40,853 nucleotides of DNA from Paracoccaceae bacterium (GCA_025458385.1 JALOSO010000001.1:1-40853); one strand, 5' to 3'. Positions 8,226-39,942 are shown, counted from the first letter of the stretch. Numbers and translations are program-made. The notes: generated by a model not told the origin, from the sequence alone.

Positions 8226-8237
8226 CCCATCCCTTGC

Positions 8238-8262
8238 GTGCCGGACAGCACTTGTCCGGCAC
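8238..8262. terminator. Hairpin between convergent genes (GTGCCGGACA-gcact-TGTCCGGCAC)
   Basis: Perfect 10-bp stem with 5-nt loop between convergent CDSs; no clear T-tract, so intrinsic terminator activity is uncertain. Confidence 0.5.
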
Positions 8263-8297
8263 CCCCCGACCGTGGCCCTGCCCTGTCTGGCGGCGTG

Positions 8298-14296: not shown

Positions 14297-15058
14297 TCAG
14301 CGCAGTTCCAGCAGGCCCCCGTCCACCGGAATGATCTGTCCTGTCATCCACGCCGACCGCTCTGTCGCCAAGAACAGGATCACCTCTGCAATCTCTTGCG
14401 GCGTGCCCCAGCGCGCTATGGGATAGCGGCCGATCACCTGTGCCAAAAGTGCCTGAAACTCTGCCTCATCGGCGGCCCGTGCGCGAAACTGCGACTCGGA
14501 CAAGGGCGTGCGCACCGCACCGGGGGCAACCGCATTGACACGCACGCCACGCGCCGCGAAATCGGCCGCGAGTTGCCGGGTCAGTGCAACGACGGCGCCC
14601 TTGGCGGCGGAATAGGCCGCCACGCCCTTCATCCCCGAAAGACCCACCGTCGAAGCCGTGAAAACAAGCGTTCCCCCCTGCGCGAGCAGATGCGGCATCA
14701 CCGCGCGCGCCGTCAAGAAAGCGCCGGTGGCGTTGACCTGCATCGCACGGTTCCAGCTGTCCAGCGAAAGCGACAGCACATCGCCCTCGACCATCGCGCC
14801 CGCGTTCGCGATGCAGGTGTCAACCTGCCCCGTCCAGCCGATCGCCGCATCGACCATAGCCGCGACCGAGCTTTCCTCCGCCACATCGGCACGCACAGGC
14901 CGTGCCTGATGGCCCAAGGCGATCAATTCCGCCGCCGTCTGGTGTGCCGCGGCTTCGTTCAGGTCGGCGCAGAGCACGGCAAAGCCGTCGGCGGCGCAGC
15001 GTTCGGCAGCGGCCCGCCCGATTCCTGACCCCGCACCCGTGACAATCGCGGTTTTCAT
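14297..15058 (-). CDS. SDR-family oxidoreductase
   Basis: TGAGSGIGRAAAERCAADG Rossmann motif, YSAAKGAV catalytic motif, C-terminal IIPVDGGLL. ATG at 15058 overlaps the stop of the upstream gene. Confidence 0.92.
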   Translation of the reverse strand: MKTAIVTGAGSGIGRAAAERCAADGFAVLCADLNEAAAHQTAAELIALGHQARPVRADVAEESSVAAMVDAAIGWTGQVDTCIANAGAMVEGDVLSLSLDSWNRAMQVNATGAFLTARAVMPHLLAQGGTLVFTASTVGLSGMKGVAAYSAAKGAVVALTRQLAADFAARGVRVNAVAPGAVRTPLSESQFRARAADEAEFQALLAQVIGRYPIARWGTPQEIAEVILFLATERSAWMTGQIIPVDGGLLELR

Positions 15059-15747
15059 CAGGCCGGGTCCGGGGCAAAGATCTGCGGATACATGGCCCGC
15101 ATCGCGTCTTGATCCATCTCGATCTTGAAGGCGTGCCGATCCTTGAGCGTCAGCGCACGCTGTGCAGCAGGTCTGGCATCCAGTTCCGCCATCAGTCTTG
15201 AAATATTGGGAAACTCTTGCAAGGCCCCGTCGCCGAGCATGGCCGGGATGCGCGGCGCCCACCCCCAGACAGCCATGTCGAGGATCGTGTAGCGATCGCC
15301 CATCATGTAACGACCCTGAGCCAGACGATCGTCGATGATGCGCCAATGCCTGCGCGCCTCATAGTCATAGCGCTTGCGCGCATAGGCGTTGTCGCCGGGC
15401 GCAAAATTGCGGAAGTGAACGGCCTGCCCCGAAAACGGCCCGACGCCCGAGGCGATGAACATCAGCCAGGACAGCAGGGCGCCCCGGTTCTGCGGCGTCG
15501 CCTCGGGCAGGAACTGCCCGGTTTTTTCCGCCAGATACAGCAAGATGGCATTGCTGTCGAAAACGACCACATCGCCATCCACCAGGGCCGGCACCTTGGC
15601 ATTCGGATTGATGGCAAGATAGGACGGCTCGTGCTGCTGGCCCCGCTTCGTATCGACGGCCACACCTTCATAGGGCAGACCGGATTCTTCCAGAAACAAG
15701 GCGACTTTCAACGGGTTGGGCGCCGCGTTGTAATAGAACTTGATCAT
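15058..15747 (-). CDS. Glutathione S-transferase-like protein
   Basis: Thioredoxin-like N-domain MIKFYYNAAPNPLKVALFLEESGLPYEGV...NPNAKVPALVDGD..VFDSNAILLYLAEK. Confidence 0.9.
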   Translation of the reverse strand: MIKFYYNAAPNPLKVALFLEESGLPYEGVAVDTKRGQQHEPSYLAINPNAKVPALVDGDVVVFDSNAILLYLAEKTGQFLPEATPQNRGALLSWLMFIASGVGPFSGQAVHFRNFAPGDNAYARKRYDYEARRHWRIIDDRLAQGRYMMGDRYTILDMAVWGWAPRIPAMLGDGALQEFPNISRLMAELDARPAAQRALTLKDRHAFKIEMDQDAMRAMYPQIFAPDPA

Positions 15748-16661
15748 CAGGGCTGTCCTTGTGTTTGGGGCGTGACACGGGTCTTCCAGACCCAGTCCGC
15801 GATTTCTGCATGCGTTGCGAACCAGATCGGCCCGCGCGATCTTGCATGCGCAATCAACTGGTCCAGGATCCAGATCCGGGATCGATAGCCGATGACAAAG
15901 GGATGCATCACCAACTGGAACATCCCGCCCTCGTCAAAGGCCGCATCAAACTCGCGCCGGAAAATGTCGAACACCGCGTCTGGCGGGGTCCAGGGCCGGG
16001 TCGCCGGATCGCGGTTGAAAAGCAGGTAAACCGCGTCATCGCGCACCCATTCGACCGGCACCTCGACCACGCCCGTCGGCTTGCCATTCGTGACCAGTTC
16101 ATAACATTCGTCATCGGCCATCAGGCTGCTGTCATAGGCAAAGCCCAGTTCGGCCACGAGGTCGATGGTGTGCGGGCTCAGATCCCACTGGGCCGCACGA
16201 TGGCCCACGGGGCGCTGCCCGGTCAGCCGTTCCAATGTGTCGCGGGCGCGCAGCATCAACTCGCGCTCGGTGCTGCGATCCAGGCGCGAGGTGTTTTCGT
16301 GAATCCAGCCATGCACCCCGATTTCATGCCCTGCGTCGGTAATGGGGCGCATCGCATCAGGATCGATCAGGGCCGCAACGGCGGGTGTGAAAAAGGTGGC
16401 GCACACATCGTGACGGCGCAGCACCTCAAGCACGCGCGGCACCCCCGTGCGGCGCCCGAACTCCCCCCAGGCAAGCCGCCCGATGGCGGCACGCCCCTGC
16501 CCCAGTTCAAAGGTTTCATGATCGGCATCAAAAGACAGCGCCACCGCACAACGCGCATCATTGGGCCAGCGCGCAGGCTTGAGCGGTTGTCCCGCGCGCA
16601 CCCGGTGGATCAGGCGGCGCCATTCATCCTCGGGCATATCCCAGACGCGGTCAGGCAGCAT
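15747..16661 (-). CDS. Polysaccharide deacetylase (CE4) / PuuE-allantoinase-like amidohydrolase
   Basis: AVALSFDADHETFELG, ATFFTPAVAALIDP, GHEIGVHGWIHENTSRL: NodB-homology/PuuE-like motifs. Start MLPDRVWDMPEDEW chosen over the ORF start at 16709. Confidence 0.85.
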   Translation of the reverse strand: MLPDRVWDMPEDEWRRLIHRVRAGQPLKPARWPNDARCAVALSFDADHETFELGQGRAAIGRLAWGEFGRRTGVPRVLEVLRRHDVCATFFTPAVAALIDPDAMRPITDAGHEIGVHGWIHENTSRLDRSTERELMLRARDTLERLTGQRPVGHRAAQWDLSPHTIDLVAELGFAYDSSLMADDECYELVTNGKPTGVVEVPVEWVRDDAVYLLFNRDPATRPWTPPDAVFDIFRREFDAAFDEGGMFQLVMHPFVIGYRSRIWILDQLIAHARSRGPIWFATHAEIADWVWKTRVTPQTQGQP

Positions 16662-16845
16662 CACGCGCCCCCGATGATGGCGTATCGCACGGTGGCAAAG
16701 GTGGCGCAAAGATGGACATGTTCACCAGACGGGGCTTTCTGTTCAATATGAAAACATTTGTTTGCATATCGCCCAAAAACACTACAAAGCCGCGACCCGC
16801 ACTGTCCACACTTTTCGCACAAAAGTTCGAATTTTTCGGCGCACC

Positions 16846-17502
16846 CTATGGCTGCAACTCGGCGACCAGCTGGTCCGTCGTAACCTGCCTGCAATAGCCC
16901 TTTATCGCGGCGATGGATGCCGCCTGACGCGCCGCCCCGAAGGTCAGGCAGGCATCTGTCACCTGTGTCACCAGATAGCCCAGATCACAGGCATCGCGAA
17001 TGGCGCTTTCAACACATTGATCGGTCAGGACACCACAGATGATGATCTGCTGCACTCCCAGGTTCCGCAGCACGTAATCGATATGGGTGGAGACAAAGAC
17101 GCTGGAGGAGGATTTCGGGAACACCATCTCATCCCCCTGTGGCGCGATCTCGTCCAGCACCTTTCCGTCCCACGACCCCTTTGGCACATTGAAGCCGCTG
17201 ATCTTGTAATCAAGGCTTCGGTCGCGCCCATCCAGCGTCAGGCTCTCGATGGTCGTGAACATCACCTCGACCCCCGCCTTGCGCGCCGCCGCCTGCACGC
17301 GTTGCATCCGTGGCAGGGTCTGGCTGCGCAGCTCTGCCAGAAACGGATCCCGGCGCTCGGCGCATTCTGCGGGCGTCATGCTTGCCCACTCGGCCCCGTC
17401 CGGATGGCAGGAGAAGTTCTGCACATCGATGAACAGCAAGGCCGCGCGATTCGGCACGATCGGAATTTCACGAGATGTGGTTGACAAGAATGGCGACTGC
17501 AT
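16846..17502 (-). CDS. Isochorismatase-superfamily cysteine hydrolase
   Basis: AALLFIDVQNFSC (catalytic Asp), KSSSSVFVSTHIDYVLRNLGVQQIIICGVLTDQCVESAIRDACDLGYLV (catalytic Cys region). Start at MQSPFLSTTSREIPIV. Confidence 0.88.
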   Translation of the reverse strand: MQSPFLSTTSREIPIVPNRAALLFIDVQNFSCHPDGAEWASMTPAECAERRDPFLAELRSQTLPRMQRVQAAARKAGVEVMFTTIESLTLDGRDRSLDYKISGFNVPKGSWDGKVLDEIAPQGDEMVFPKSSSSVFVSTHIDYVLRNLGVQQIIICGVLTDQCVESAIRDACDLGYLVTQVTDACLTFGAARQAASIAAIKGYCRQVTTDQLVAELQP

Positions 17503-17766
17503 GGCGACCTTTTCCGGGATATGGCGCTGCCGAAGCAGCAAAATAACGCACATATGTTCAGCATGTTCTGCCGCGAAAGCAAGCTGTTGAGCGGGCAGAC
17601 CTGCGCGCACAGCCGCGACCCATGCGGCAAGATAACGATATATATAATTATATCAGACTCTTATTTGATGATCCGCACGGCGGGGCGCAGTCCAGCCGAC
17701 CGTTGCGCGAAAGATTAGCGGCGACCTGCAAGAATATCGTTGAAAAATCGATTTTTGCGCATAACA

Positions 17767-17781
17767 GTTCGCATAGCGAAC
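17767..17781. promoter_or_regulatory. Perfect inverted repeat GTTCGC-ata-GCGAAC, candidate operator
   Basis: 6-bp arms and 3-bp centre, immediately upstream of the Shine-Dalgarno AAGGAGG and the ATG at 17794 of the Pot-like operon. Confidence 0.65.
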
Positions 17782-17793
17782 AAGGAGGTTCAC

Positions 17794-18987
17794 ATGAACA
17801 GCGACCGTATCTTGCACCGGATGGCGTCCCGCAACCCCCTGCGTCAGCCCATGCAGCATTCTCTGAGCCGCAGGACATTTATGCAGGCGCTTGCCGCAGG
17901 CACCGCAGCGGCCAGCCTGCCCCTCGCGGCACAGGCACAAACGCGCCCGCTGTCGCTGTTGACGTGGGATGCCTATGCCGACCCGCGCCTGCTTGCCTTG
18001 TGGAAGGAACAGACGGGCGGCGACATCCGTTATGAAATTCACATCTCGGACCCAAGTTCGGTCAACCGACTGCGCGCCGGTGAAACCTCGGTCTGGGATT
18101 TCGTCAACCTCAACAACCCTTGGGCGCGGGGGGAATTGTGGCCCGCTGGATTGATCCGCGAATTGCCACGCGATCGGTTCGAGCCGCTTTATGCACAGAT
18201 GAAACCCAAATTCGTCGCCCCCTATCCTTGGGCCATGAGCGAGGACGGCAATCACCTGCTTGGCATTGTGCAGCGGTATGAAACCTTTGACTTCGTTGTG
18301 AATTCGGATGTGATCTCCCCCCAGCTTGCCAAGGACGAAGGCTGGGACCTGTTCAACAACCCGGATTTCACCGGCCGCTACGGCATTCTTGCCTATGAGG
18401 ACTGGAACGTGATGGACATCTGCATGGGCGCAGGGGTTCACCCGTTCAAAGTAAAGACCGATGAAGAAGTCGCGAAATTCGAAGAAACGGCCAAGCGCTG
18501 GATTCAGAACGCGAAACTGATCACCACGGATTTCGTGCAGCTGAACCTTGCCATCCTGAATGGCGAGATCGATCTGTATTTCACCGGCGGCACCTATACC
18601 ACGGCGGCAGCGCGGCTGGAGGGGGTCAGCAATCTCTATGCCATAACCCCCAATTCGGGGCCGGCCGATGGCAAGGGTGGCATCAACTGGATCGAAATCA
18701 ACTCTGCGGTGGCCAACCCCGACCCGCTGGATGCGGCTTTCGACTTCCTCGAATTCATCACAACCCCCGACGCGGCCGAGATCGTGGCGCGCGGCAACGG
18801 CAACTTCCAACCCGTCGCCCAGATGGCAAACCCCGAACTGATGGCACGCTTCTCGACCGAGGAGCTGGCCGCCATCCAGTGGGATGAATTCGATGAACGG
18901 GTCAGCAACGCGGTCGAGTTCGACATCGTCCCCGATTACGACCGGCTGTATGACATCTACTCCGCAGCGATGCGCGCAAGGGGCTAA
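17794..18987 (+). CDS. Spermidine/putrescine-type ABC transporter substrate-binding protein (PotD-like)
   Basis: Tat-like signal SRRTFMQALAAGTAAASLPLAAQA, then PotD-like LLTWDAYADPRLLALWKEQTGG; SD AAGGAGG precedes the ATG at 17794. Confidence 0.85.
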   Translation: MNSDRILHRMASRNPLRQPMQHSLSRRTFMQALAAGTAAASLPLAAQAQTRPLSLLTWDAYADPRLLALWKEQTGGDIRYEIHISDPSSVNRLRAGETSVWDFVNLNNPWARGELWPAGLIRELPRDRFEPLYAQMKPKFVAPYPWAMSEDGNHLLGIVQRYETFDFVVNSDVISPQLAKDEGWDLFNNPDFTGRYGILAYEDWNVMDICMGAGVHPFKVKTDEEVAKFEETAKRWIQNAKLITTDFVQLNLAILNGEIDLYFTGGTYTTAAARLEGVSNLYAITPNSGPADGKGGINWIEINSAVANPDPLDAAFDFLEFITTPDAAEIVARGNGNFQPVAQMANPELMARFSTEELAAIQWDEFDERVSNAVEFDIVPDYDRLYDIYSAAMRARG

Positions 18988-18990
18988 GGC

Positions 18991-20028
18991 ATGACCAAAT
19001 CCCCGGCGGCCCTGTCGCTGACGGGTCTGACCAAGCGGTTCGGCGCCATGACGGCGGTCGATGACATATCCATCGACATCCGCGAGGGTGAGTTCTTCAC
19101 CATCGTCGGCCCTTCGGGCAGCGGCAAATCCACTCTGGTCCGGCTTCTGGCCGGGCTGGAGGCGCCAACCTCTGGCCGCCTGCATTTGCGCGGTCTTGAT
19201 ATCACTGCGATGCCAGCCAACCGTCGGCCAACGGCCATGGTGTTCCAGTCCCTCGCCTTGTTCGATCATCGCTCGGTCGGGCAGAACATCGAATTTGCGA
19301 TGAAGATGAAAGGGGTCGCGCCAGAGGCGCGGCGGCTTCGGGCTCTGGAATTGCTGCGCCTGGTTCGCCTGCCCGAAAGCTATTATGCGCGACCCGTGAC
19401 GCAATGTTCAGGCGGCGAGCGTCAGCGCGTGGCCCTTGCCCGCGCCTTGGGGTCCGACCCCGAGATCCTGTTTTTTGACGAACCGCTTTCGGCGATCGAC
19501 TACCGCTTGCGCAAGACGCTGGAGGTGGAGCTCAAGGAACTGCATCAGCGCACCGGCAAGACCTTCATCTACATCACCCACAGTCTGGAAGAAGCCATGG
19601 TCCTGTCGGACCGCATCGCCATCATGCGGGCGGGCCGCTTTGAGCAGATCGGCACCCCGGATGAGATTTATCGACACCCCACCAGCCGCTTCGTCGCAAG
19701 TTTCATGGGCGAGGTGAACATCCTCGCCGTGTCGCAAACCCCCGCGGGCCCCGTGTTCGCCGATCTGGAGTGCGCGGCACCCGAAGCTGCCGGCGCCTTT
19801 GCCGTGCTGCGCCCGGAATCCCTGCGCCCGGATGCTTCGGCACCCGTGACATTCGCCGCAACCGTCACCCAGAAGCTGATGCTTGGGTCGCGGACCCAGT
19901 TTCACCTGCGCGCGGGGCAGGCCGCCCTGATCGCCGAGATTGCGGCAGGGTCCGGTGCTTCGCTAAGCCTTGGTGAAACGGCACGCTTCGGCTTTGACCC
20001 GGCCGATATTGCCTGGGTGCAGGCATGA
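18991..20028 (+). CDS. ABC transporter ATP-binding protein (PotA-like)
   Basis: GPSGSGKSTLVRLLAG, QCSGGERQRVALARAL, EILFFDEPLSAID, C-terminal TOBE-like region. Confidence 0.93.
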   Translation: MTKSPAALSLTGLTKRFGAMTAVDDISIDIREGEFFTIVGPSGSGKSTLVRLLAGLEAPTSGRLHLRGLDITAMPANRRPTAMVFQSLALFDHRSVGQNIEFAMKMKGVAPEARRLRALELLRLVRLPESYYARPVTQCSGGERQRVALARALGSDPEILFFDEPLSAIDYRLRKTLEVELKELHQRTGKTFIYITHSLEEAMVLSDRIAIMRAGRFEQIGTPDEIYRHPTSRFVASFMGEVNILAVSQTPAGPVFADLECAAPEAAGAFAVLRPESLRPDASAPVTFAATVTQKLMLGSRTQFHLRAGQAALIAEIAAGSGASLSLGETARFGFDPADIAWVQA

Positions 20029-20870
20029 TGCGGCGCAATCCCGGCTTCTGGTTTGCGCTGCCCCTGATCGCTGCGATGCTTTTGTTCTTTGCGGCGCCCT
20101 TGGTGATTGTGGTCTGGTTCAGCCTGATGCCGCCGCGCAGCTTTGATCTGACAACCGATTTCGGGCTTCAGAATTACCAAAGCGCCTTTGCAGACGGATA
20201 CGGCCCGCCGCTGATGTGGTCGCTGATCGGCGCCACCCTGACGACCGCCATCACCGCAGCCCTGGCCTGGCCCACGGCAAAAATCCTCCACCGACATGCG
20301 GGCCGGTGGGCAAGCATCGTCACCGCGCTGATCGCCTTGCCGATCTTCATTTCAGAAAGCGTGCGGCTGTTCGGCTTGTCGGTGTTCTTGATGCCCGGCG
20401 GTGGCATTCTGGCCGGAACGCTGAAGGCGCTGTTTGACGTGCAGATCGGCACGATCCTGAACACGCGCTTCGCTGCGCTGCTTGGCATGGTCTATATCCA
20501 CTTCCCCTTCATGCTGTTTCCAATGCTGCTTGGCGTGGGCATGATCCCCGCGGACCGGATCGAGGCGGCGCAGGATCTTGGGGCGGGCCGCTGGGCCATT
20601 CTGCGCGAGGTCGAACTGCCGCTTGCCGCGCCCGGCCTGCTGGTTGGCGGTCTGCTGACATTCGTGCTGTGCCTTGGCGCGAATGCCGAGGCTGCCATTC
20701 TGGGCGGCCGGGCCGTGACCGTCATCACCGCAGCGATCGAGCAAAGGTTCAATTACGCACAGGATTGGCCCATGGGGGCGGCGCTGACCGTGCTGGTCAT
20801 CCTGGTCACGGCGGCACTGGTCTTTCCTGCTGTCCGGCGGATCGACCTGAACAGGATCATCCGGCGATGA
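20025..20870 (+). CDS. ABC transporter permease (PotB-like)
   Basis: Multi-spanning protein with EAAQDLGAGRWAILREVELPLAAPGL (EAA loop); ATGA overlap with the ATPase. Confidence 0.9.
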   Translation: MMRRNPGFWFALPLIAAMLLFFAAPLVIVVWFSLMPPRSFDLTTDFGLQNYQSAFADGYGPPLMWSLIGATLTTAITAALAWPTAKILHRHAGRWASIVTALIALPIFISESVRLFGLSVFLMPGGGILAGTLKALFDVQIGTILNTRFAALLGMVYIHFPFMLFPMLLGVGMIPADRIEAAQDLGAGRWAILREVELPLAAPGLLVGGLLTFVLCLGANAEAAILGGRAVTVITAAIEQRFNYAQDWPMGAALTVLVILVTAALVFPAVRRIDLNRIIRR

Positions 20871-21661
20871 TCGGCGGGCGCGCACGCAATTGGGTCAAGG
20901 TGATTTGGGTCTGCACGATCCTGACGGCCCTTTATCTGCCGATCCTGTCGGTTCTGCTCGCCTCGTTGGCGAACACCCGCTACATGCGCTTTCCGCACAA
21001 GGTATGGAGTCTGGATGCCTACCGCGGCGCGGCGGCCGATTACACAACAGTCACGCTGCATGTGATTTCGCTTCAGATCGCGGTCTGGGTGGTGCTGTTG
21101 TCGGTTGTTCTGGGCACGCTCGGCGCCATGGCCTATGCCCGCTATGACTGGCGCGGGCGCACCCTGTTCCAGAAGATGCTGGTGCTGCCCATCTTTTTTC
21201 CGCAGCCGGTTCTGGGCCTTGCACTTCTGCTTTCGATGTCGGCGCTTGGCATCGCGCCAAGCTGGAAAACGGCCGTGGTCGCCCATGCCGTGTGGATCGT
21301 TCCGATTGTCACCCTTGTCATCTCGATCCGCCTGTTCGGCTACGACGTGGCGCAAGAGGAGGCGGCCTTCGACCTCGGCGCAAGCCGTTGGCAGGTCGCG
21401 CGCGAAGTGACCTTCCCCGCCTTGTGGCCCGGCATCTTTTCCGGGGCCTTGTTCGCCTTTCTGCTGTCTTGGTCCAATCTGCCGTTGTCCATCTACACCA
21501 GCGGCGCGGATACGCCCCTGCCGTTGTGGCTGTTTTCGCGCACCGCAACCAATTACTCGCCCCTCGTTCCGGCAATCGCGGTCATCGGCACCTTTGTGTC
21601 GGGGCTTGTTGTTCTTGCCCTTCTCTTGCTGCGACGGGTGCTGTCTCGGGCAGCCAATTGA
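20867..21661 (+). CDS. ABC transporter permease (PotC-like)
   Basis: EEAAFDLGASRWQVAREVTFPALWPGIFSG EAA loop; ATG at 20867 (MIGGRARNW) overlaps the stop of the previous permease. Confidence 0.9.
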   Translation: MIGGRARNWVKVIWVCTILTALYLPILSVLLASLANTRYMRFPHKVWSLDAYRGAAADYTTVTLHVISLQIAVWVVLLSVVLGTLGAMAYARYDWRGRTLFQKMLVLPIFFPQPVLGLALLLSMSALGIAPSWKTAVVAHAVWIVPIVTLVISIRLFGYDVAQEEAAFDLGASRWQVAREVTFPALWPGIFSGALFAFLLSWSNLPLSIYTSGADTPLPLWLFSRTATNYSPLVPAIAVIGTFVSGLVVLALLLLRRVLSRAAN

Positions 21662-21668
21662 ATAAACC

Positions 21669-21689
21669 TTTGTGCGCTTTACGCACAAA
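21669..21689. promoter_or_regulatory. Perfect inverted repeat TTTGTGCG-cttta-CGCACAAA, candidate operator
   Basis: 8-bp arms, 5-bp centre, in the gap between the PotC-like gene and the SnoaL-like gene. Confidence 0.65.
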
Positions 21690-21717
21690 AGCGCGCCATG
21701 CGCAGGCCAGGAAATCG

Positions 21718-22182
21718 ATGGAACAAAGCACGACATTGCAGGATGTTCTGGATCGGGAGCAGATCACCGCCCTGATCCACGCCTATTGCTTTCACTTTGA
21801 CCGCAACGAGCCAAACGCGCTTGCGGCGCTGTTCACGCCCGATGCCCGTGTGGACTATGGGCCCGAAGCACAGCTTCTGACCGGAACAGAAGCCATTCGC
21901 GCGGCTGTGGCCAAAGGCTTGGCCGAAACCTTCGCCGCAACAAGCCACCATGTGTCAAACATCAGTATTCGCTTGGAATCCGCGACAGTTGCGACCAGCA
22001 TCTGCTATCTCTACGCATGGCACCGCTATCATTCCGGCGCCCCCGATGGCGAGCTTTGGGCGCAGTATCACCACAGCTTTGTGCGGACCGAAGCGGGCTG
22101 GAGAATCCAGGGCCTGACCCTGAAGGCCGCTGGCACCAAGGATTTTCACCGCCGAACCATGCATGGCATTGGCCGCGCCTGA
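21718..22182 (+). CDS. SnoaL-like / NTF2-fold protein
   Basis: LQDVLDREQITALIHAYCFHFDRNEPNALAALFTPDARVDYGP ... YHHSFVRTEAGWRIQGLTL, typical of the SnoaL_4-like NTF2 fold. Confidence 0.82.
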   Translation: MEQSTTLQDVLDREQITALIHAYCFHFDRNEPNALAALFTPDARVDYGPEAQLLTGTEAIRAAVAKGLAETFAATSHHVSNISIRLESATVATSICYLYAWHRYHSGAPDGELWAQYHHSFVRTEAGWRIQGLTLKAAGTKDFHRRTMHGIGRA

Positions 22183-22227
22183 CTGGCGCCAAGCCATTTG
22201 GGCCATCGGACCGATCGAAAACGGCAA

Positions 22228-22246
22228 TTGTTCTATATGCGAACAA
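22228..22246. promoter_or_regulatory. Inverted repeat TTGTTC-tatatgc-GAACAA, candidate operator
   Basis: Perfect 6-bp arms; core GTTC-N7-GAAC is the same spacing as the site at 17767; upstream of the TRAP operon. Confidence 0.6.
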
Positions 22247-22350
22247 AAGAAACTATTGCGCACAAAACGATTCTGATGAAGTAATTGTGAACGATCCCGA
22301 GGGCACCGCATGCCCCGAGATGACCAGGGCCAAGATCAGAGGACGCGCTC

Positions 22351-22878
22351 GTGCAGACTATCGTTTCAGCTGTGGACAGACTGAATGCAGGCGTGACCCT
22401 TGTGGTCGGCCTGCTGCTGATGGTGGTGACGGTCTCGGTCTTTGGGCAAGTGACCGTGCGGTTCATCCTGACGACAGGCGGCATCAATATCAGCGCGCCC
22501 TGGACCGAAGAACTGGCCCGGTATTCGCTGATCTGGATGGTCTTTCTGGGCGCCGGCGTCGGCGTGCGCCACGCGCAGATGATCGCGCTGGAATTCGTGA
22601 TCCGCAAACTGCCGGCCCGGGTCGGCATCCCGTTGCGCTATGTGTCGATCCTGCTTGGCATCGCCTTCTTTGCGCTGATGTTCTGGGTCGGCCTCGGGTT
22701 CGTGGACCTTGGCCGGTCCGAAACCAGCCCGGTGCTGGGGATCACAAAGGATTACGTCTATTGGGCCATGCCCTTTGGGGCGGCGTTGATGATCCTGAAC
22801 TCGCTTGCCCTGGTCATCGATACCCATCTCAACGCCCGCGACATCCGCTTCGTCGCTGATGAAACGCCGGAGGTCTGA
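22351..22878 (+). CDS. TRAP transporter small permease (DctQ-like)
   Basis: Four hydrophobic segments, WTEELARYSLIWMVFLGAGVGVRHAQMIALEF; GTG start. Confidence 0.92.
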   Translation: MQTIVSAVDRLNAGVTLVVGLLLMVVTVSVFGQVTVRFILTTGGINISAPWTEELARYSLIWMVFLGAGVGVRHAQMIALEFVIRKLPARVGIPLRYVSILLGIAFFALMFWVGLGFVDLGRSETSPVLGITKDYVYWAMPFGAALMILNSLALVIDTHLNARDIRFVADETPEV

Positions 22879-22881
22879 ACC

Positions 22882-24153
22882 ATGGCCGGATTGATCCTTG
22901 TTCTTCTTGGCTTGTTCGCGATCAGTGTGCCGATCGCCCTTGCCCTTGGCATGGCATCCTTGCCGGTGCTGATCGAACGCGGCGTGCCACTGATCGCGGT
23001 GCCGCAGGTGGTGTTCGAGTCTCTGGACAGCTTCACCCTGATGGCGCTGCCGCTGTATGTGCTCGCCGGGCGGTTGATGCAGTTCGGCGGGATTGCGGAA
23101 CGGCTGGTCGATCTTGCCAAGGCGCTGCTCAGCTGGGTGCGCGGCGGGCTGGCGGCGGCGGTGGTTCTGACGTCGATGCTGTTTGCCACCATTTCCGGCT
23201 CGTCGGCGGCGACCGCGGCCGCGGTGGGGTCGATGCTGATCCCCGAGATGGAAAAGCAGAAATATCCGCGGCCGTTCAGTGCGGCCACCACCGCGGCGTC
23301 GGGCGAACTTGGCGTGATCATCCCCCCATCGGTGGCCATGATCATTTATGGCGTCACCACCGGCGTTTCCATCACCGACATGTTCATCGCGGGCTTCCTG
23401 CCCGGGCTTCTGATCGGCCTGTCCCTGATTGCAACCGTCATCGTCATTTCAATTATCAAGGGCTACGGCGATCGGCAGGCCTTTGTCCTCGGCCCCTATC
23501 TGCGCGGCCTGTGGAAAGCGGCAAGACGCGCCTCGTTGTCGCTGTTCTTGCCGGTCATCATCCTTGGCGGCATCTTTGGCGGCATCTTCACCGCCACCGA
23601 AGCCGCCGTGGTGGCAGTGATCTATGCCATCCTGCTCAGCGTGTTTGTCTATCGCGAGATCAGCTTTCGCGAAATGCCGCGCATCTTTGCCGATGCGGCC
23701 GTCACCTCGGCGGTGGTCATGATCATCGTGGCCTTTGCGGCCATGTTCGGCTTTGCCCTGCATCTCATGCGCGCGCCGCAGATCATCGGCGGGTTGCTCA
23801 GCACGCTGACCGACGATCCTCTGATGTTCCTGCTGCTGGTCAACCTGTTCCTGCTGGGCGTCGGCATGTTCATGGAAACCTTCGCCGCCATCATCATCCT
23901 TGGTCCGATCCTTGCCCCGATTGCGGCAAGCTACGGGATCCATCCGGTGCATTTCGGGATGATCATGATCGTCAACCTTGCCGTTGGCATGGTGACGCCG
24001 CCGGTTGGGGTCAATCTGTTCATCGCCTGCGGCATTGCGAAGATCTCGATGGAACAGCTGATCCGGCCGCTTGTCGTGTTCCTCGTCGTTCTGATCGGGA
24101 ACCTGATGCTCATCACCTACGTCCCCAGCATTTCGCTGGTTCTGCTTGACTGA
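22882..24153 (+). CDS. TRAP transporter large permease (DctM-like)
   Basis: SGSSAATAAAVGSMLIPEMEKQKYPRPFSAATTAASGELGVIIPPSVAMIIYG; 423 aa. Confidence 0.96.
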   Translation: MAGLILVLLGLFAISVPIALALGMASLPVLIERGVPLIAVPQVVFESLDSFTLMALPLYVLAGRLMQFGGIAERLVDLAKALLSWVRGGLAAAVVLTSMLFATISGSSAATAAAVGSMLIPEMEKQKYPRPFSAATTAASGELGVIIPPSVAMIIYGVTTGVSITDMFIAGFLPGLLIGLSLIATVIVISIIKGYGDRQAFVLGPYLRGLWKAARRASLSLFLPVIILGGIFGGIFTATEAAVVAVIYAILLSVFVYREISFREMPRIFADAAVTSAVVMIIVAFAAMFGFALHLMRAPQIIGGLLSTLTDDPLMFLLLVNLFLLGVGMFMETFAAIIILGPILAPIAASYGIHPVHFGMIMIVNLAVGMVTPPVGVNLFIACGIAKISMEQLIRPLVVFLVVLIGNLMLITYVPSISLVLLD

Positions 24154-24183
24154 CAACCCGCAATCAACACGGAGGAAAACCCA

Positions 24184-25173
24184 ATGAACGCGTTCAAGAC
24201 CCTGATCGCATCGGTCGCCAGCAGCATCGTGCTTGCCGGCGGCGCCGTTGCAGAAACCTACAACATGACGCTCGCCCATGTGCTGAGCGACCAAAGCCCC
24301 TATCAGGTGATCCTGACGCATTTTTCCAAATTGATGGAAGAACGCTCGGGTGGCCGCATCACGGTCGAAATCCAGTGCTGCGCCCAAGCCGGGAATGAAA
24401 CGCGGGCCATCCAGTCGATCCGCACCGGCATTCTGACCGGCGGCTTCATCGGCGGGTCCACGCTTGAAACGGTGGTGCCCGCCTATCGCGTGCTGTCCCT
24501 GCCCTATCTGTTCGACAACAAGGCCCAAGCCTACGAGATCCTGCAAAGCGACATGGGGCGCGAGATGATGGATCTGCTGGGCGAATATGACATGTATGGC
24601 CTTGGCTTCGGGTCCAGCTATGAACGCAGCGTGGCCTCGCGTGCGCCGGTTCGGATCGAAACCGTGGATGATCTGGCGGGCGTGAAAATCCGCGTCTTGC
24701 CGACCCCGGGTTTTGTCGAGGCTTACAATGCCTTTGGCACCCAGCCGACCCCGATGGCTTATGGCGAACTGTTCATGGCGCTTCAGAACAATGTCGTCGA
24801 TGCGATCGAAATTTCGCCTGACGCCTTGGTGGCAGACAAGTTCCACGAAATCGTCAACAGCTACACCATGCTGACGGTGCACCAATCAACCACCGTCTTC
24901 CTGCTGTCGAAGTCGTTCTGGGACTCGCTGCCTGATGATCTGAAAGAGATCGTGCAAACGGCGGCCACGGAATCCATCGCCGTTGGCATTGCAGCGCATG
25001 ACAAACTGGCCGCGGACGGCATCGAAACCGCACGCGCCGCAGGTGTCGAAATCATCGAACCCGATCTGGCTCCGTTCAAGGAAAAGGCAAAACTGGCTTG
25101 GGATGTGATCCTGAAGGACCAGCCCGAAGCGCAAGAGTATCTTGCCCGCATCCAGACTGCGCTTGGCCGTTGA
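24184..25173 (+). CDS. TRAP transporter substrate-binding protein (DctP-like)
   Basis: Signal peptide, LAHVLSDQSPYQVILTHFSKLMEERSGGRITVEI, RVLPTPGFVEAYNAFGTQPTPMAYGELFMALQNNVVDAIE. Confidence 0.96.
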   Translation: MNAFKTLIASVASSIVLAGGAVAETYNMTLAHVLSDQSPYQVILTHFSKLMEERSGGRITVEIQCCAQAGNETRAIQSIRTGILTGGFIGGSTLETVVPAYRVLSLPYLFDNKAQAYEILQSDMGREMMDLLGEYDMYGLGFGSSYERSVASRAPVRIETVDDLAGVKIRVLPTPGFVEAYNAFGTQPTPMAYGELFMALQNNVVDAIEISPDALVADKFHEIVNSYTMLTVHQSTTVFLLSKSFWDSLPDDLKEIVQTAATESIAVGIAAHDKLAADGIETARAAGVEIIEPDLAPFKEKAKLAWDVILKDQPEAQEYLARIQTALGR

Positions 25174-25208
25174 TCTGCCGCGCTGTGTGACACGCATTGA
25201 TACCCAGA

Positions 25209-25238
25209 CCTTGGGCCGGGCACTTGACCGGCCCAAGG
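25209..25238 (+). terminator. Hairpin downstream of dctP-like gene (CCTTGGGCCGG-gcacttga-CCGGCCCAAGG)
   Basis: Perfect 11-bp stem; weak pyrimidine-rich tail, no run of Ts. Confidence 0.5.
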
Positions 25239-25296
25239 CGACCTTCCTTTCGTGCGGGCGCAACCCGTGCCCGGCACCTGCAAGGCGGAGATCGGC

Positions 25297-26598
25297 ATGC
25301 CCTCAGACGGTCATTTTCTGTTCCTTGGCAATCAGGATCTGAACGGTATCCTGCGCGGCCGATCGGTTCCCAAGGCCCGGGTCGCCGAAGCGATGGCCGA
25401 AGGTCTGCCCTGGGTTCCGGCCAACCTGACCATCGGCGCGCTGAATGGCCTGCCCCCGGATACGCCGTTCGGGCCTTTGGGGGAAATCCGGTTTGTGCCG
25501 GATCCCGCTGCCCGCATTACCCTGGGGGCGCAGGATGGCGGCCCGGCATTCGACCTTGCGCTGTGCGACGCGCGCCAGATGGATGGCGCGCCATGGGCGT
25601 GCTGCCCACGCACCGCGCTGAAATCCGCGATCAGCGATCTTTCCCGAAGGACCGGCCTGACCCTCAAGGTCGCGCTGGAGCATGAATTTACCGTCCTTGG
25701 CCTGAACCAACCCAATCACGTGGCCTTTTCCCTTTCGGCTGGACGTGCGATCGCCCCCTTGGCGCAACGTGTGATCGACGTGCTGGATCGCGCGGGCATC
25801 GCGCTGGAGCAATTTCAGGCCGAATATGGCGCGTCGCAATTCGAGATCAGTTCGGTTCCGACCGACCCGCTGACGGCGGCCGACCGGACCGTCCTCACGC
25901 TCGAGACGATCCGGGACACGGCGCGCGGCATGGGCCTTCGGGCCAGCTTCCTGCCCAAACCAGCCCTGGATGAGGTTGGCAACGGCGTTCACATCCACTT
26001 TTCGCTTTGGGATGGCCCGCGCAACGTGACAGCAGACCAGGACTGGTTGACCCCGCGCTCGGCCCCCTTTGTCGCAGGGGTGCTTGACCACGCGGAAAGC
26101 CTGCTGCCCCTGACGATCCTGTCGGCCAATTCCTATGCAAGGGTGCGCCCGCATTCCTGGGTGGGGGCCTATACCTGCGTCGGGCTGCGCAACCGCGAGG
26201 CGATGATACGGCTTGTTCCAAGGGCCCCGGCGTCTGACGGAACGCATCCCAAAGCATCGCTGGAATACCGGGTGTGCGATGCAACGGCGAACATCTACCT
26301 GGCCCTTGCAGCCATCATCCGGGCCGGCCTTGCGGGCATCGCCGCCGGTTCTGCCGCCCCGCCCAACGTGCAGCATGACCCCGATACGCTGGAACCATCC
26401 CAGCGAGCCGCCTGGAACATCCGGCCGTTGCCTGCCTCGCTGTCAGAGGCCCTGACCCCATCGGCGCTTGCCGACGCGTCTGCCTGGCTGGGACCAGAGC
26501 TTGCGTCGGTCTATTTTGGGTGCCGCCGCCATGATGCCCGTCAGGCCGCCGATCATACGTTTGACGAACTCGCGGCAAAACTTTCGCTGGTTTACTGA
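25297..26598 (+). CDS. Glutamine synthetase-superfamily ligase (type I GS-like; substrate unknown)
   Basis: LEHEFTVLG, QAEYGASQFEI, GNGVHIHFSLWDG, NSYARVRPHSWVGAYTCVGLRNREAMIRL, ASLEYRVCDATANIYLALAA keep the GS catalytic-motif order. ATG 25297 preferred (SD AAGGCGGAG) over the GTG at 25252. Confidence 0.88.
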   Translation: MPSDGHFLFLGNQDLNGILRGRSVPKARVAEAMAEGLPWVPANLTIGALNGLPPDTPFGPLGEIRFVPDPAARITLGAQDGGPAFDLALCDARQMDGAPWACCPRTALKSAISDLSRRTGLTLKVALEHEFTVLGLNQPNHVAFSLSAGRAIAPLAQRVIDVLDRAGIALEQFQAEYGASQFEISSVPTDPLTAADRTVLTLETIRDTARGMGLRASFLPKPALDEVGNGVHIHFSLWDGPRNVTADQDWLTPRSAPFVAGVLDHAESLLPLTILSANSYARVRPHSWVGAYTCVGLRNREAMIRLVPRAPASDGTHPKASLEYRVCDATANIYLALAAIIRAGLAGIAAGSAAPPNVQHDPDTLEPSQRAAWNIRPLPASLSEALTPSALADASAWLGPELASVYFGCRRHDARQAADHTFDELAAKLSLVY

Positions 26599-26693
26599 CG
26601 CGGCAGCGATGCGCAGGGCACTGAAACAGCCATAGCGCGAACTAATGTTCAAAAATTTGTTTACAGGCGCCCTGCCAAGGCTTAGCGTATCAA

Positions 26694-26721
26694 GAACTTT
26701 TGTGCGCAATGTGAACTTTTG
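26694..26721. promoter_or_regulatory. Direct repeat GAACTTTTG(tgcgcaatgt)GAACTTTTG, candidate operator
   Basis: Two GAACTTTTG copies 19 bp apart upstream of the Dpp/Opp operon; the left copy extends to GAACTTTTGTGCG, the reverse complement of 16816-16828. Confidence 0.5.
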
Positions 26722-26789: not shown

Positions 26790-28397
26790 GTGAATCGACT
26801 TGGTTTTGCCATCCTGGCAACCCTTGCGCTTGGCGGCCCAACCGCCGCCCTTGCCCAAGAGGTGCTGACCATCGGTGTGCGGTCCGAAGCGGCAACGCTT
26901 GACCCGCACTGGACCCAGCTTTCAGCGGATCTTCAGCTGCAAGAGCACATCTTCGAGCATCTGGTCGATCTGGACAGCGCATCGCAGCCTGCGCCCGGCC
27001 TGGCTTTGTCCTGGGCGCCGATCAATGACACAACGTGGGAATTCAAACTGCGGCAGGGCGTGACCTGGCACGATGGCGAGGCGTTCAACGCCGACGACGT
27101 GATCTATTCGTTTGACAGGCTGAAGGCCGGGATCGAAGGGGCAACCGCAAGCCCCGCGTTCCAGCTTGCCAAGGGCGGCAAGGTCTGGACGAAGGTGGAC
27201 GACTATACGATCCACATCACGACCGAAGGCCCATATCCCACCATGGCCGAAGATTTGGCCATGATCCCGATCGTCGCCCAGCACGTGGTGCCGGGCAAAA
27301 CCCCGTCGGTGGATTTCAACTCTGGCGCGGCGGCCATCGGCACCGGGCCGTTCGTCTTCAAGGAATTCAGCCCCGGCAACCGCATCGTCGTGGCCAAGAA
27401 CCCCAACTGGTGGGGCGGCGACCCCGGCTGGGATGAGGTGGTGTTCCGCCCCGTCGGCGAAGACAGCGCGCGGCTGGCCGCCCTGCTCAACGGTGACGTG
27501 GACATGATCGACTACCCGCCAACGGTTGATCTTCCACAGCTGGAGGCAAACGAAAACTTCCGTGTCTCGACCATCGCGTCGGATCGTCTGATCTACATGA
27601 TGCCGTCCTATCGGCACATCGAACCCTATATCACCGCCAATGATGGCAGCCCGATGATGAACCCGCTGCGCGATTGGCGCGTGCGCAAGGCGCTGTCGCT
27701 GGCGATCAACCGCGACGCCATCCGCGACCGGATCATGGGTGGTGCCGCACTTCCCACGCGCAACATCGTGCCGCCGGGCTTCTTCGGCTATGTCGAGGAT
27801 CTGCAACCCGACGCTTATGATGTCGAGGCGGCCAAGGCCCTGCTGGCCGAGGCGGGCTATGCCGACGGGTTCCGCATGACGATCCACGGCCCGAACGACC
27901 GCTACATCAACGATGCCCGCATCGTCGAAGCCGTGGCGCAGTTCTGGACGCAGATCGGGATCACGACCGAGGTCGATACCATGCCGCGCGCGGTGTTCTT
28001 CTCGGATCTGATCCGCGGCGGGGCCGACAGTTTCGCGGGTTTTAACAGCCCGAAGTTCTCGATGTCGCTGACCGGCTGGGGCACTGTCGCGGGCGAGGCG
28101 ACCTATACGGTGTCAGGCATCCTTGAAACCTACAACGCGGCGACCGGCGGCGGAAACGGCAACTTTGGCCGCTATTCCAACCCGTCGATCGATGCAAAGT
28201 CGGTGCTGGCCAAGCAGACGATCGACCGCGACGCACGCCTTGCGCTTTTGCAGGACGCAACCCGCTGGGGGATGGAAGACTACTCCCTGATCCCGCTGCA
28301 TTTTCAGGTCAACAAATGGGCCATGAAGGCAGGGCTTGAACACTTCCCCCGCACGAACGAGCGCACTCTGGCAACCGAAGTCAAACGTGTTGACTGA
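26790..28397 (+). CDS. Peptide/nickel-type ABC transporter substrate-binding protein (SBP family 5)
   Basis: LTIGVRSEAATLDPHWTQLSADLQLQEHIFEHLVDLD, GTGPFVFKEFSPGNRIVVAKNPNWWGG; GTG start after CGGAGG. Confidence 0.95.
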   Translation: MNRLGFAILATLALGGPTAALAQEVLTIGVRSEAATLDPHWTQLSADLQLQEHIFEHLVDLDSASQPAPGLALSWAPINDTTWEFKLRQGVTWHDGEAFNADDVIYSFDRLKAGIEGATASPAFQLAKGGKVWTKVDDYTIHITTEGPYPTMAEDLAMIPIVAQHVVPGKTPSVDFNSGAAAIGTGPFVFKEFSPGNRIVVAKNPNWWGGDPGWDEVVFRPVGEDSARLAALLNGDVDMIDYPPTVDLPQLEANENFRVSTIASDRLIYMMPSYRHIEPYITANDGSPMMNPLRDWRVRKALSLAINRDAIRDRIMGGAALPTRNIVPPGFFGYVEDLQPDAYDVEAAKALLAEAGYADGFRMTIHGPNDRYINDARIVEAVAQFWTQIGITTEVDTMPRAVFFSDLIRGGADSFAGFNSPKFSMSLTGWGTVAGEATYTVSGILETYNAATGGGNGNFGRYSNPSIDAKSVLAKQTIDRDARLALLQDATRWGMEDYSLIPLHFQVNKWAMKAGLEHFPRTNERTLATEVKRVD

Positions 28398-28428
28398 CGC
28401 ATGAGCAGGGCGAGGCAAAGGGAAACCC

Positions 28429-29406
28429 ATGGCTGAATTCATCCTCAGACGCATCCTTCAGGCGCTTTTGGTCCTGTTCGTGATGACCGTGCTGGTGTTC
28501 TTCGGGATCCATGTCATCGGCAACCCCGTCGATCTCTTTGCTTCGTCCGAGTGCACCAAGGCCTGTCTGGACGAGATCATGGTCAACCTTGGTCTCGACC
28601 GTCCGGTCTGGCAGCAATATCTGATCTTCCTCGGCAATCTCGCCGAGGGGGATCTGGGCCGCTCCTTCACCCACGGCGTGCCCGCGATGAGCCTGATCTG
28701 GGAACGGTTTCCAGCAACGCTTGAACTCGCGGTCGCGGCCTTGGTGCTGGCGCTTGGCATCGGCCTGCCGCTTGGCTTCTACGCTGGCCTGCGCCCCGAA
28801 AGCATCCTGTCCAAGGTCATCATGGCCTTGTCGATGATCGGCTTTTCCGTGCCGATCTTCTGGATCGGTCTGATCCTGATCCTGACGTTTTCGGTCTATC
28901 TGGGATGGCTTCCCGCCATTGGCCGGGGCGAGCTTGTCTCCGTTTTGGGGCTGGAGGTGAGCTTTCTCACCCTCGACGGGCTGCGCCATCTGGCGATGCC
29001 GGCCTTCACCCTGTCCCTTCTGATGATGTCGATGGTCATCCGCCTGACCCGGGCGGGCCTGCGCGAAGTGATGACGTCAGATTACATTCGCTTTGCCCGG
29101 GCCAATGGCGTGCCGGAATACCGTGTGCTGGGTTGGCATGCGATGAAGAACCTGCTGATCCCGATCGTCACCGTGCTTGGCATGGAATTTGGCGGGGTCA
29201 TTGCCTTTGCCGTGGTCACGGAGTCGATCTTTTCCTGGCCCGGCGTTGGCAAGATGCTGATCGACGCGATCAGCGTGCTGGATCGGCCGTTGATCGTCGC
29301 CTACCTGATCTTCGTGGTCACGATGTTTGTCCTGCTCAATCTGGTGATCGACATCCTTTATTCGCTGCTTGATCCGCGCGTGCGCCTTGGCGCCGGGGCG
29401 GTCTGA
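28429..29406 (+). CDS. Peptide-type ABC transporter permease (DppB-like)
   Basis: FILRRILQALLVLFVMTVLVFFGIHVIGNPVD ... ARANGVPEYRVLGWHAMKNLLIPIVTVLGMEFGGVIAFAVVTESIFSWPGVGKML. Confidence 0.95.
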   Translation: MAEFILRRILQALLVLFVMTVLVFFGIHVIGNPVDLFASSECTKACLDEIMVNLGLDRPVWQQYLIFLGNLAEGDLGRSFTHGVPAMSLIWERFPATLELAVAALVLALGIGLPLGFYAGLRPESILSKVIMALSMIGFSVPIFWIGLILILTFSVYLGWLPAIGRGELVSVLGLEVSFLTLDGLRHLAMPAFTLSLLMMSMVIRLTRAGLREVMTSDYIRFARANGVPEYRVLGWHAMKNLLIPIVTVLGMEFGGVIAFAVVTESIFSWPGVGKMLIDAISVLDRPLIVAYLIFVVTMFVLLNLVIDILYSLLDPRVRLGAGAV

Positions 29407-29408
29407 GG

Positions 29409-30302
29409 ATGGCCATGATCACCGCCGAACGTCCCTCGCGCCTGCGCGCCTTCACCACCGCCTTTCTGGGCTCGCCCACCGCGACCGTTGCGCTCTGCGT
29501 CTTTGTCGCGATGACCCTTGCAGCGATTTTTGCGCCCCTGATCGCACCGCAAGACCCTTATGACCTGCGGTCGGTGTCGATCCTCGACAACCTTCTGCCG
29601 CCCGGTGAAACGAGCTTTGACGGCCTGACCTATTGGCTTGGCACCGATGGCCAAGGGCGCGACATGCTGTCCGCCATGCTTTACGGCTTGCGGATTTCGC
29701 TTGTCGTCGGCCTTGCCTCGGGGGTGATCGCCCTTGCCTTTGGCACCTTGGTCGGATTGGTCGCCGCGTTTCGGGGCGGCTGGGTCGATGCGCTGTTGAT
29801 GCGGATCGTCGATCTGCAACTCAGCCTTCCCACGATCCTTGTCGCCCTGATCCTGCTGGTCATTCTGGGGCGAGGGATCGACAAGATCATTGTGGCGCTT
29901 GTGGTGGTGCAATGGGCCTATTTTGCCCGCACCGTGCGCGGCGTGGCCCTGGTCGAGAATGCAAGGGATTATGTCGATGCCGCACGCGGCCTGCGGCTGC
30001 CGCCCTTGCGTATCTTGTTCCACCACATCCTGCCCAATTGCCTGCCCACCCTGCTTGTCGTGGCGACGATCCAGATGGCACAGGCAATTTCGCTGGAAGC
30101 CACGCTCAGCTTCCTTGGCCTTGGCCTGCCCCCGACGCGGCCCTCTCTGGGCCTGCTGATCGCAAACGGGTTTGATTACCTGCAATCGGGCCGCTGGTGG
30201 ATTTCGGTGCTGCCCGGCGTGGTGCTGCTGGTGCTGGTCGTGTCGATCAACGTCGTGGGGGATCGCCTGCGCGACGTTCTGAACCCCCATCTGAGAGGCT
30301 GA
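29409..30302 (+). CDS. Peptide-type ABC transporter permease (DppC-like)
   Basis: GTDGQGRDMLSAMLYGLRISLVVGLASGVIAL, EATLSFLGLGLPPTRPSLGLLIANG. Confidence 0.95.
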   Translation: MAMITAERPSRLRAFTTAFLGSPTATVALCVFVAMTLAAIFAPLIAPQDPYDLRSVSILDNLLPPGETSFDGLTYWLGTDGQGRDMLSAMLYGLRISLVVGLASGVIALAFGTLVGLVAAFRGGWVDALLMRIVDLQLSLPTILVALILLVILGRGIDKIIVALVVVQWAYFARTVRGVALVENARDYVDAARGLRLPPLRILFHHILPNCLPTLLVVATIQMAQAISLEATLSFLGLGLPPTRPSLGLLIANGFDYLQSGRWWISVLPGVVLLVLVVSINVVGDRLRDVLNPHLRG

Positions 30303-30304
30303 CG

Positions 30305-32262: not shown

Positions 32263-32288
32263 ATCCGAACCACCCAAGGGAGTAACCG

Positions 32289-34996: not shown

Positions 34997-35020
34997 GTCA
35001 TGTCCTTGTATTGGGCTGCT

Positions 35021-36400: not shown

Positions 36401-37095
36401 ATCAAGCTCTCCTGCCGGGTGTTGGCGATCAGTTCCGGCACGCTGGCCTGATTGGGCAGCGACAGCAGGAAGGACACCATGCCCGCAACGGTTTCGGGCG
36501 TCAGACGATCTGGTTTCGGAGTGGCGCCCACGACATTGGCGATCAGATCGGTGTCGATCGCCCCGGGGCACAGGGCGGTGGCGCGCACGCCATCGTCCCA
36601 GGCGGCCGCACGCACCGCCTGCGTCATCGACAACAGCGCGTGCTTGGTCATCGAATAGCCCACGCTGGTGCCGTTGCGATAACGCTTTGCGTCGGTCGAG
36701 GCGATGTTGATCACCCGCCCCTGCCCGGTCTTGCGCAGATGCGGCAAGGCTTCCCTTATCAGGCGGAACGGCGCTTTGACATTGACCGCCCACATGGCGT
36801 CAAGGTCATCTTCGCTGCCGCGCTCGAAATCGACCATGGTCATGATACCGGCATTGTTCACAAGCGCGTCGATGCGTCCGAACCGCGCGACCGCGGCGGC
36901 AACCCAGGCGGTGGCGGCATCGGGGTCTTTTGCGTCAAACGGCACGGCCTGAACGCGATCCGGGGCACCGAATTGCGTGGCCTGATCCAGGTTGCGCAGG
37001 CCGAGCGACAGGGACCAGCCTTCGGAAACAAGCCGTTCGGCAATCGCGGCGCCAAGCCCGCGACCCCCCCCGGAAAGAAGCGCGACCCGGGACAT
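36397..37095 (-). CDS. SDR-family oxidoreductase
   Basis: [36 protein letters not shown] 37095 overlaps the upstream stop. Confidence 0.9.
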
Positions 37096-39939: not shown

Positions 39940-39942
39940 GGA

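What the first reader, a model, noticed from the sequence alone, without database searches (positions are those of the whole stretch)
16816..26706. Exact 13-mer shared by two non-coding gaps 10 kb apart, within a candidate regulon spanning five operons
CGCACAAAAGTTC occurs at 16816-16828 (+), and its reverse complement GAACTTTTGTGCG at 26694-26706. Related words (CGCACAAA, GTTC-N7-GAAC) occur in the gaps at 17.77, 21.67 and 22.2 kb. All lie in promoter-type gaps serving the CE4 operon, Pot-like ABC, SnoaL-like gene, TRAP and Dpp/Opp operons. No regulator gene is present between 14.3 and 40.8 kb, so the cognate factor would act in trans. This is the best candidate for an undescribed regulatory unit in the window: several uptake systems and N-related enzymes under one dispersed operator family.
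Basis: partly seen in the sequence, partly recalled or inferred. Interest (0 to 1): 0.65.

Follow-up and report, generated by a model that had tools for sequence, protein, structure and literature searches.

The report
Conserved operators of an IclR-type regulon
The repeated word is part of a real on/off control site that an IclR-type regulator very probably uses to switch several neighbouring uptake and breakdown operons in Rhodobacter-like bacteria, and the regulator's gene seems to lie just past the broken right end of this contig.

Summary
CGCACAAAAGTTC is exact at 16816 (+) and 26694 (-). Allowing two mismatches there are six copies (0.92 expected), all in the named gaps. The idea of a dispersed operator family under one trans factor is supported and can be made specific.

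The 13-mer is the inner part (GCAC-N4-GTTC) of a three-box operator, GTKC-N7-GMAC-N4-GTKC. In intergenic DNA of relatives' islands these two spacings stand far above all others, in two independent sets. A model trained only on other genera finds eight sites in the window's 3.2-Mb assembly: six in these gaps, two inside genes elsewhere. Four control genomes give 0-1.

The box arrangement is that published for IclR-family regulators (PcaU type). A regulator passing the PcaR/PcaU/PobR subfamily cut-off is encoded at the island's edge in relatives, divergent from the ugp operon. An exact three-box site lies in its promoter in 24 genomes. The window contig breaks about 2.4 kb before where this gene is expected, so 'no regulator' is truncation.

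Binding, sign of regulation and ligand are untested; site positions favour repression. The substrate is unknown, probably a nitrogenous compound. New member of a known kind.

The parts
16809..16833 (.).
   Evidence: 16/19 columns invariant in 5 species
17546..17559 (.). Site B1: CGCACATATGTTC, just upstream of the isochorismatase-family gene
   Evidence: conserved in relatives
17757..17783 (-). Site B2: three-box GCAT-AACA-GTTC-GCATAGC-GAAC, abutting the Shine-Dalgarno of the Pot-like ABC operon
   Evidence: 16.6 bits, E 3e-4 in window; held-out genome scan; present upstream of this gene in most Rhodobacterales loci
21664..21694 (.). Site C: TTTGTGCGCTTTACGCACAAAAG, upstream of the SnoaL-like gene
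   Evidence: conserved arrangement in relatives
22229..22264 (.). Site D: GTTC-TATATGC-GAAC-AAAA-GAAA-CTATTGC-GCAC, tandem 19-bp period, upstream of TRAP-GS
   Evidence: 32/36 columns invariant in 5 species
26636..26651 (.). Site E1: GCGAACTAATGTTC, upstream of the putative -35 (TTTACA at 26661)
26693..26721 (-).
   Evidence: exact composite pattern
14297..16709 (-). SDR, GST-like and polysaccharide-deacetylase (CE4) genes; operon downstream of site A
   Evidence: Pfam
16846..17504 (-). Isochorismatase-family hydrolase
   Evidence: Pfam
17794..21661 (+). PotD-like binding protein, ATPase and two permeases
   Evidence: Pfam; 93% identical ortholog in Pseudotabrizicola
21718..22182 (+). SnoaL-like gene
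   Evidence: Pfam
22351..26598 (+). TRAP transporter DctQ-DctM-DctP and glutamine-synthetase-like ligase
   Evidence: Pfam, NCBIfam
26790..33437 (+). Dpp/Opp ABC transporter and M24-family hydrolase
   Evidence: Pfam
33548..40773 (-). ALDH and class-III aminotransferase-SDR-SDR-DHDPS-like-UgpC-permease; start of the operon and iclR are cut off by the contig end (iclR expected to start near 43.2 kb)
   Evidence: Pfam; collinear full-length version in P. algicola and two relatives

Best explanation
The 13-mer is the central part of a three-box operator, GTKC-N7-GMAC-N4-GTKC, bound by an IclR-family regulator of the PcaR/PcaU/PobR subfamily. Its gene lies at the right-hand edge of this catabolic island, divergent from the ugp operon, and is lost from the window because the contig ends about 2.4 kb too early. 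One dimer is expected to read the outer pair of boxes (GTKC-N7-GMAC), and a second dimer or alternative dimer mode the inner pair (GMAC-N4-GTKC), with tandem sites about 19 bp apart. The sites sit at putative promoters or directly before the ribosome-binding site of the CE4, isochorismatase, Pot-like, SnoaL, TRAP-GS and Dpp-M24 operons and, in relatives, the ugp-aminotransferase operon and iclR itself. The most likely action is repression in the absence of a pathway ligand, relieved when the substrate or an intermediate binds, so that the uptake and catabolic operons open together and the regulator controls itself. Shown here: architecture, positions, conservation, linkage, co-occurrence. Inferred: identity of the binding protein, sign of regulation, ligand.
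For: Spacing: in intergenic DNA of six relatives' islands GTKC-Nk-GMAC occurs 18 times at k=7 (0-4 at other k), and GMAC-Nk-GTKC 14 times at k=4 (0-4 at other k). In 15 further loci the counts are 30 (others 0-8) and 29 (others 0-10). Specificity: the held-out model gives 6 of 8 hits in the window's assembly in the window gaps, the other 2 in genes; 12 of 14 in P. formosa on the island contig; 0-1 in four control genomes. Conservation: 127/165 site columns invariant versus 135/674 elsewhere in the same gaps. Regulator: IclR passes TIGR02431 (296.8 bits, cut-off 284.75). It is found in 9 of 199 family genomes, among them all six relatives with the close transporter ortholog, and in 14 of 14 further Rhodobacterales genomes with it. 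An exact three-box site lies in the iclR/ugp intergenic region in 24 genomes; 0 of 680 shuffled upstream regions had one. In P. algicola the order of the window continues ugpA-ugpSBP-site-iclR. Published IclR motifs: TGTYCRYW3RYGRACA (group 1), TGRAACAN1-2TGTTYCA (group 2), three-box sites combining both, tandem sites 18-22 nt apart, PcaU motif TTTGTTCGATWATCGMACAMA (PMC8222616).
Against: No binding or expression data. The iclR gene and ugpSBP are not in the window's assembly, which is about 80% complete, so the regulator is inferred from relatives. Some window sites (A, B1) have only the inner box pair intact. An unweighted exact pattern is not specific genome-wide (8 hits in a control genome); only the weighted model is. 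Two relatives also carry an XRE-cupin regulator in the island. Repression is judged from position only.
Confidence: 0.87

Rival explanations
1. The operators belong to the XRE-cupin (PuuR-like) regulator found inside the island of some relatives.
For: An XRE-cupin gene lies in the island of G141 and G025; an XRE regulator is annotated in the Antarctobacter island. It resembles PuuR weakly (53 bits, cut-off 211), and the island holds a polyamine-type ABC and a glutamine-synthetase-like ligase.
Against: No match at E 1e-15 in P. formosa (99% complete), G119 or G163, and only distant ones (29-34%) in G040, although the sites are there. The box grammar is the published IclR one, and the site is in the iclR promoter of 24 genomes.
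Confidence: 0.05
2. The same IclR sites act mainly for activation (PcaU/PcaR-like) rather than repression.
For: The subfamily contains activators (PcaU, PcaR, PobR; own knowledge). Site E1 lies upstream of the putative -35 box, a place suited to activation.
Against: E2 covers the putative transcription start and B2 abuts the Shine-Dalgarno, places typical of repression.
Confidence: 0.3
3. Chance word sharing or a dispersed repeat without regulatory function.
For: The exact 13-mer also occurs once in a coding stretch of the assembly.
Against: Spacing peaks in two independent sets, held-out genome-wide scan, conservation and autoregulatory position.
Confidence: 0.01
4. The LacI regulator at 3563-4570 in the same window is the cognate factor.
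For: It is the only classical DNA-binding regulator identified among the window genes tested.
Against: It stands next to its own Rbs-type ABC operon; in P. algicola and Pseudorhodobacter metH directly flanks the island and no lacI or Rbs-type gene is found in between, yet all sites are present. The half-sites do not have LacI-type grammar (own knowledge).
Confidence: 0.01

Closest known systems
PcaU (Acinetobacter baylyi) / PcaR (Pseudomonas putida) operators
   Same: Same 15-bp outer pair spacing GTTC-N7-GMAC (PcaU motif TTTGTTCGATWATCGMACAMA) and an additional external third box that PcaU needs for binding (PMC8222616); island regulator passes the PcaR/PcaU/PobR subfamily cut-off.
   Different: Core is RCATWGC rather than GATWATC; targets are several transporters and nitrogen-related enzymes spread over many operons, with no pca/pob genes seen in the window.
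IclR-family three-box sites of Suvorova and Gelfand 2021 (32 orthologous groups)
   Same: Alternating three boxes combining group 1 (TGT-11-ACA subgroup) and group 2, tandem copies about 19 bp apart.
   Different: Whether this orthologous group is among the 181 they studied could not be checked (supplementary tables not readable here).
PuuR (XRE-cupin) polyamine regulons
   Same: Some island genes resemble polyamine catabolism (PotD-like binding protein, glutamylputrescine-synthetase-like ligase far below cut-off).
   Different: Regulator class and operator grammar differ; XRE-cupin gene absent from most islands.

Membership tests
IclR-family regulon, PcaR/PcaU/PobR subfamily (TIGR02431) | Regulator scores above the curated subfamily cut-off | tested here: met
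   P. formosa island IclR 296.8 bits versus 284.75; PF01614 above cut-off
IclR-family regulon, PcaR/PcaU/PobR subfamily (TIGR02431) | Operator of alternating boxes, group 1 pair plus group 2 pair | tested here: met
   Spacing scans peak at N7 and N4 only; consensus matches PMC8222616
IclR-family regulon, PcaR/PcaU/PobR subfamily (TIGR02431) | Site in the regulator's own promoter (autoregulation, divergent operon) | tested here: met
   24 genomes, all but the two most distant homologs (48-49% identity) of those with upstream sequence
IclR-family regulon, PcaR/PcaU/PobR subfamily (TIGR02431) | Regulator gene present in the genome that carries the sites | tested here: inconclusive
   Present in all 20 other Rhodobacterales genomes with the close transporter ortholog; absent from the window's 80%-complete assembly, whose contig ends before the expected place
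IclR-family regulon, PcaR/PcaU/PobR subfamily (TIGR02431) | Control of protocatechuate / 4-hydroxybenzoate (beta-ketoadipate) genes | tested here: not met
   No such genes among the Pfam-identified window genes, so it is a subfamily relative, not an ortholog of PcaR/PcaU/PobR in function
IclR-family regulon, PcaR/PcaU/PobR subfamily (TIGR02431) | Direct binding and ligand response | not testable with these tools
   Needs EMSA or footprinting and expression data
XRE-cupin (PuuR-like) regulon | XRE-cupin gene present wherever the sites are | tested here: not met
   No match in G136, G119, G163 or G000

The most novel reading that the evidence does not exclude
One PcaU-type IclR regulator commands an unusually large regulon in Rhodobacterales: at least six operons in the window and, in relatives, further operons with glycine-dehydrogenase-like, opine- or imino-acid-oxidase-like and hydroxyproline-dehydratase genes. 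Together these would define an undescribed catabolic pathway for an imino or amide nitrogen compound fed by several alternative transporters.
Probability: 0.4. Interest if true: 0.6.

Novelty: new member of a known kind. Interest (0 to 1): 0.42.

Why it matters
It ties at least six operons into one pathway of unknown substrate in freshwater and marine Rhodobacterales, and shows that the missing regulator is a contig-end artefact. The regulator gives a handle (deletion, ligand screen) for finding the substrate. The alternating boxes add a well-populated case for the open question of whether IclR proteins use two dimerisation modes on one operator.

Tried and rejected
The exact 13-mer as a genome-wide word: only one extra exact copy, coding. 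Unsupervised motif search (own EM) drifted into GC-rich and AT-rich low-complexity patterns and gave nothing; replaced by the spacing scan. The unweighted composite pattern genome-wide was not specific (a control genome without the regulator had 8 hits); replaced by the weighted model. XRE-cupin as regulator considered and rejected. LacI of the window considered and rejected. An attempt to find ugpSBP or iclR on another contig of the window's assembly failed. The two extra model hits in the window's assembly turned out to lie inside genes. [quoted passage not shown] Literature searches found no paper on this regulon; the library lacks most subscription journals.

Full report
OBSERVATION. The exact 13-mer CGCACAAAAGTTC is at 16816-16828 (+) and 26694-26706 (-). 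With two mismatches allowed there are six matches in the 40.9-kb window against 0.92 expected, and no shuffle reached six. The exact word is not enriched genome-wide: the assembly's one other exact copy is in a coding stretch.

SURROUNDINGS. From left to right the island holds SDR-GST-CE4 (-), an isochorismatase-family hydrolase (-), a PotD-like ABC transporter (+), a SnoaL-like gene, a TRAP transporter with a glutamine-synthetase-like ligase, a Dpp transporter with an M24 hydrolase, then ALDH and an operon aminotransferase-SDR-SDR-DHDPS-UgpC-permease (-) that runs off the contig. The same gene set, partly rearranged, is found in six other family genomes. It is collinear with the window in Pseudotabrizicola algicola and a Pseudotabrizicola MAG, and nearly so in Pseudorhodobacter sp. 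MZDSW-24AT. P. formosa has the same order but lacks the Dpp-M24 genes at that place.

WHAT THE WORD IS. Comparing gaps with P. formosa showed the words to be conserved footprints and suggested two box spacings. These were tested by counting GTKC-Nk-GMAC and GMAC-Nk-GTKC for k from 0 to 21. In intergenic DNA of six relatives' islands only k=7 (18 counts; others 0-4) and k=4 (14 counts; others 0-4) stand out. Fifteen further loci gave 30 at k=7 (others 0-8) and 29 at k=4 (others 0-10). The unit is therefore GTKC-N7-GMAC-N4-GTKC, three boxes of alternating direction. Site D carries two units in tandem with a 19-bp period.

SPECIFICITY AND CONSERVATION. A sequence-only model was built from 18 sites of eight genomes, none from the window's genome or P. 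formosa. In the window's 3.19-Mb assembly it gives eight hits at E up to 5: six in the window gaps, two elsewhere inside genes. P. formosa has 12 of 14 on the island contig. Four control genomes without the regulator ortholog have 0, 1, 1 and 1. Four further genomes that have it (G141, G040, G025, G185) have 9-13, but these contributed training sites and are not held out. In four to five collinear species 127 of 165 site columns are invariant, against 135 of 674 in the rest of the same gaps. Upstream of the PotD-like gene the site recurs in most Rhodobacterales loci and is missing from the gammaproteobacterial ones.

THE REGULATOR. IclR-family genes were listed in seven genomes. One set of orthologs (58-88% identity to the P. 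formosa protein) stands next to the island in P. formosa, G040 and G141. It passes the PcaR/PcaU/PobR subfamily cut-off. It occurs in 9 of 199 family genomes, including all six relatives that carry the close PotD-like ortholog, and in 14 of 14 further Rhodobacterales genomes with that gene; six of the nine other genomes lack a close copy. It lies divergent from ugpSBP, and an exact three-box site is in the shared intergenic region of nine family genomes (in G119 split over two contigs), 14 further Rhodobacterales genomes and one Salinarimonas genome, against 0 of 680 shuffles. In P. algicola the order after the permease at which the window ends is ugpA-ugpSBP-site-iclR, with iclR 2.47 kb beyond that permease. 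The window's iclR is thus expected near 43.2 kb, past the contig end at 40853. Neither iclR nor ugpSBP was found elsewhere in the 80%-complete assembly.

COMPARISON WITH THE KNOWN. Suvorova and Gelfand (PMC8222616) describe IclR-family group 1 sites (subgroup TGTYCRYW3RYGRACA), group 2 sites (TGRAACAN1-2TGTTYCA), three-box sites joining both, and tandem sites 18-22 nt apart; the PcaU motif TTTGTTCGATWATCGMACAMA has the same N7 spacing and its third box is needed for binding. The operators here follow that grammar. This is therefore a new member of a known kind, not a new kind. Functionally it is not a PcaR/PcaU/PobR ortholog, as no pca or pob genes were seen among the window's genes.

MECHANISM. 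In the dpp gap a putative promoter (TTTACA, 17 bp, TAGCGT) is flanked by E1 upstream and E2 at the expected start; B2 abuts the Shine-Dalgarno of the Pot-like operon. Such positions suit repression relieved by a ligand; a PcaU-like activating role is not excluded. The substrate is unknown. [quoted passage not shown]

VERDICT. Observation confirmed, interpretation supported and extended; interest moderate because the architecture is known for the family, while the regulon and its substrate appear undescribed in the papers that could be searched.

Noticed in passing
3563-14123: A LacI-Rbs-type ABC cassette and a HWE kinase / CheR / hybrid kinase block lie between metH and the island in the window, whereas metH directly flanks the island in P. 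algicola and Pseudorhodobacter (L164, L163): apparently a lineage-specific insertion.
   Followed up: partly
L127:14873-19058; L128:9023-13398: In relatives three-box sites precede a cluster of ATP-NAD-kinase-like, GcvPA-like and GcvPB-like genes, suggesting a dedicated glycine-decarboxylase-like enzyme in the same regulon.
   Followed up: partly
[quoted passage not shown]
   Followed up: partly
L029:18559-19242; L042; L162:29699-30421: XRE-cupin (PuuR-like) or XRE regulator inside the island of some relatives (G141, G025, Antarctobacter plasmid), perhaps a second input into the same genes.
   Followed up: partly
G136 joined island (L021-L023), 27.97-30.68 kb: P. formosa carries a second TRAP transporter where the window has the Dpp-M24 genes.
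   Followed up: no
L173, L180, L181, L184, L187, L190: Mostly gammaproteobacterial loci keep close (71-81%) PotD-like orthologs but lack this IclR and its sites, so the transporter may be under a different regulator there.
   Followed up: no
L200: The iclR homolog of Tateyamaria pelophila shows one in-frame TAA in the draft assembly.
   Followed up: no
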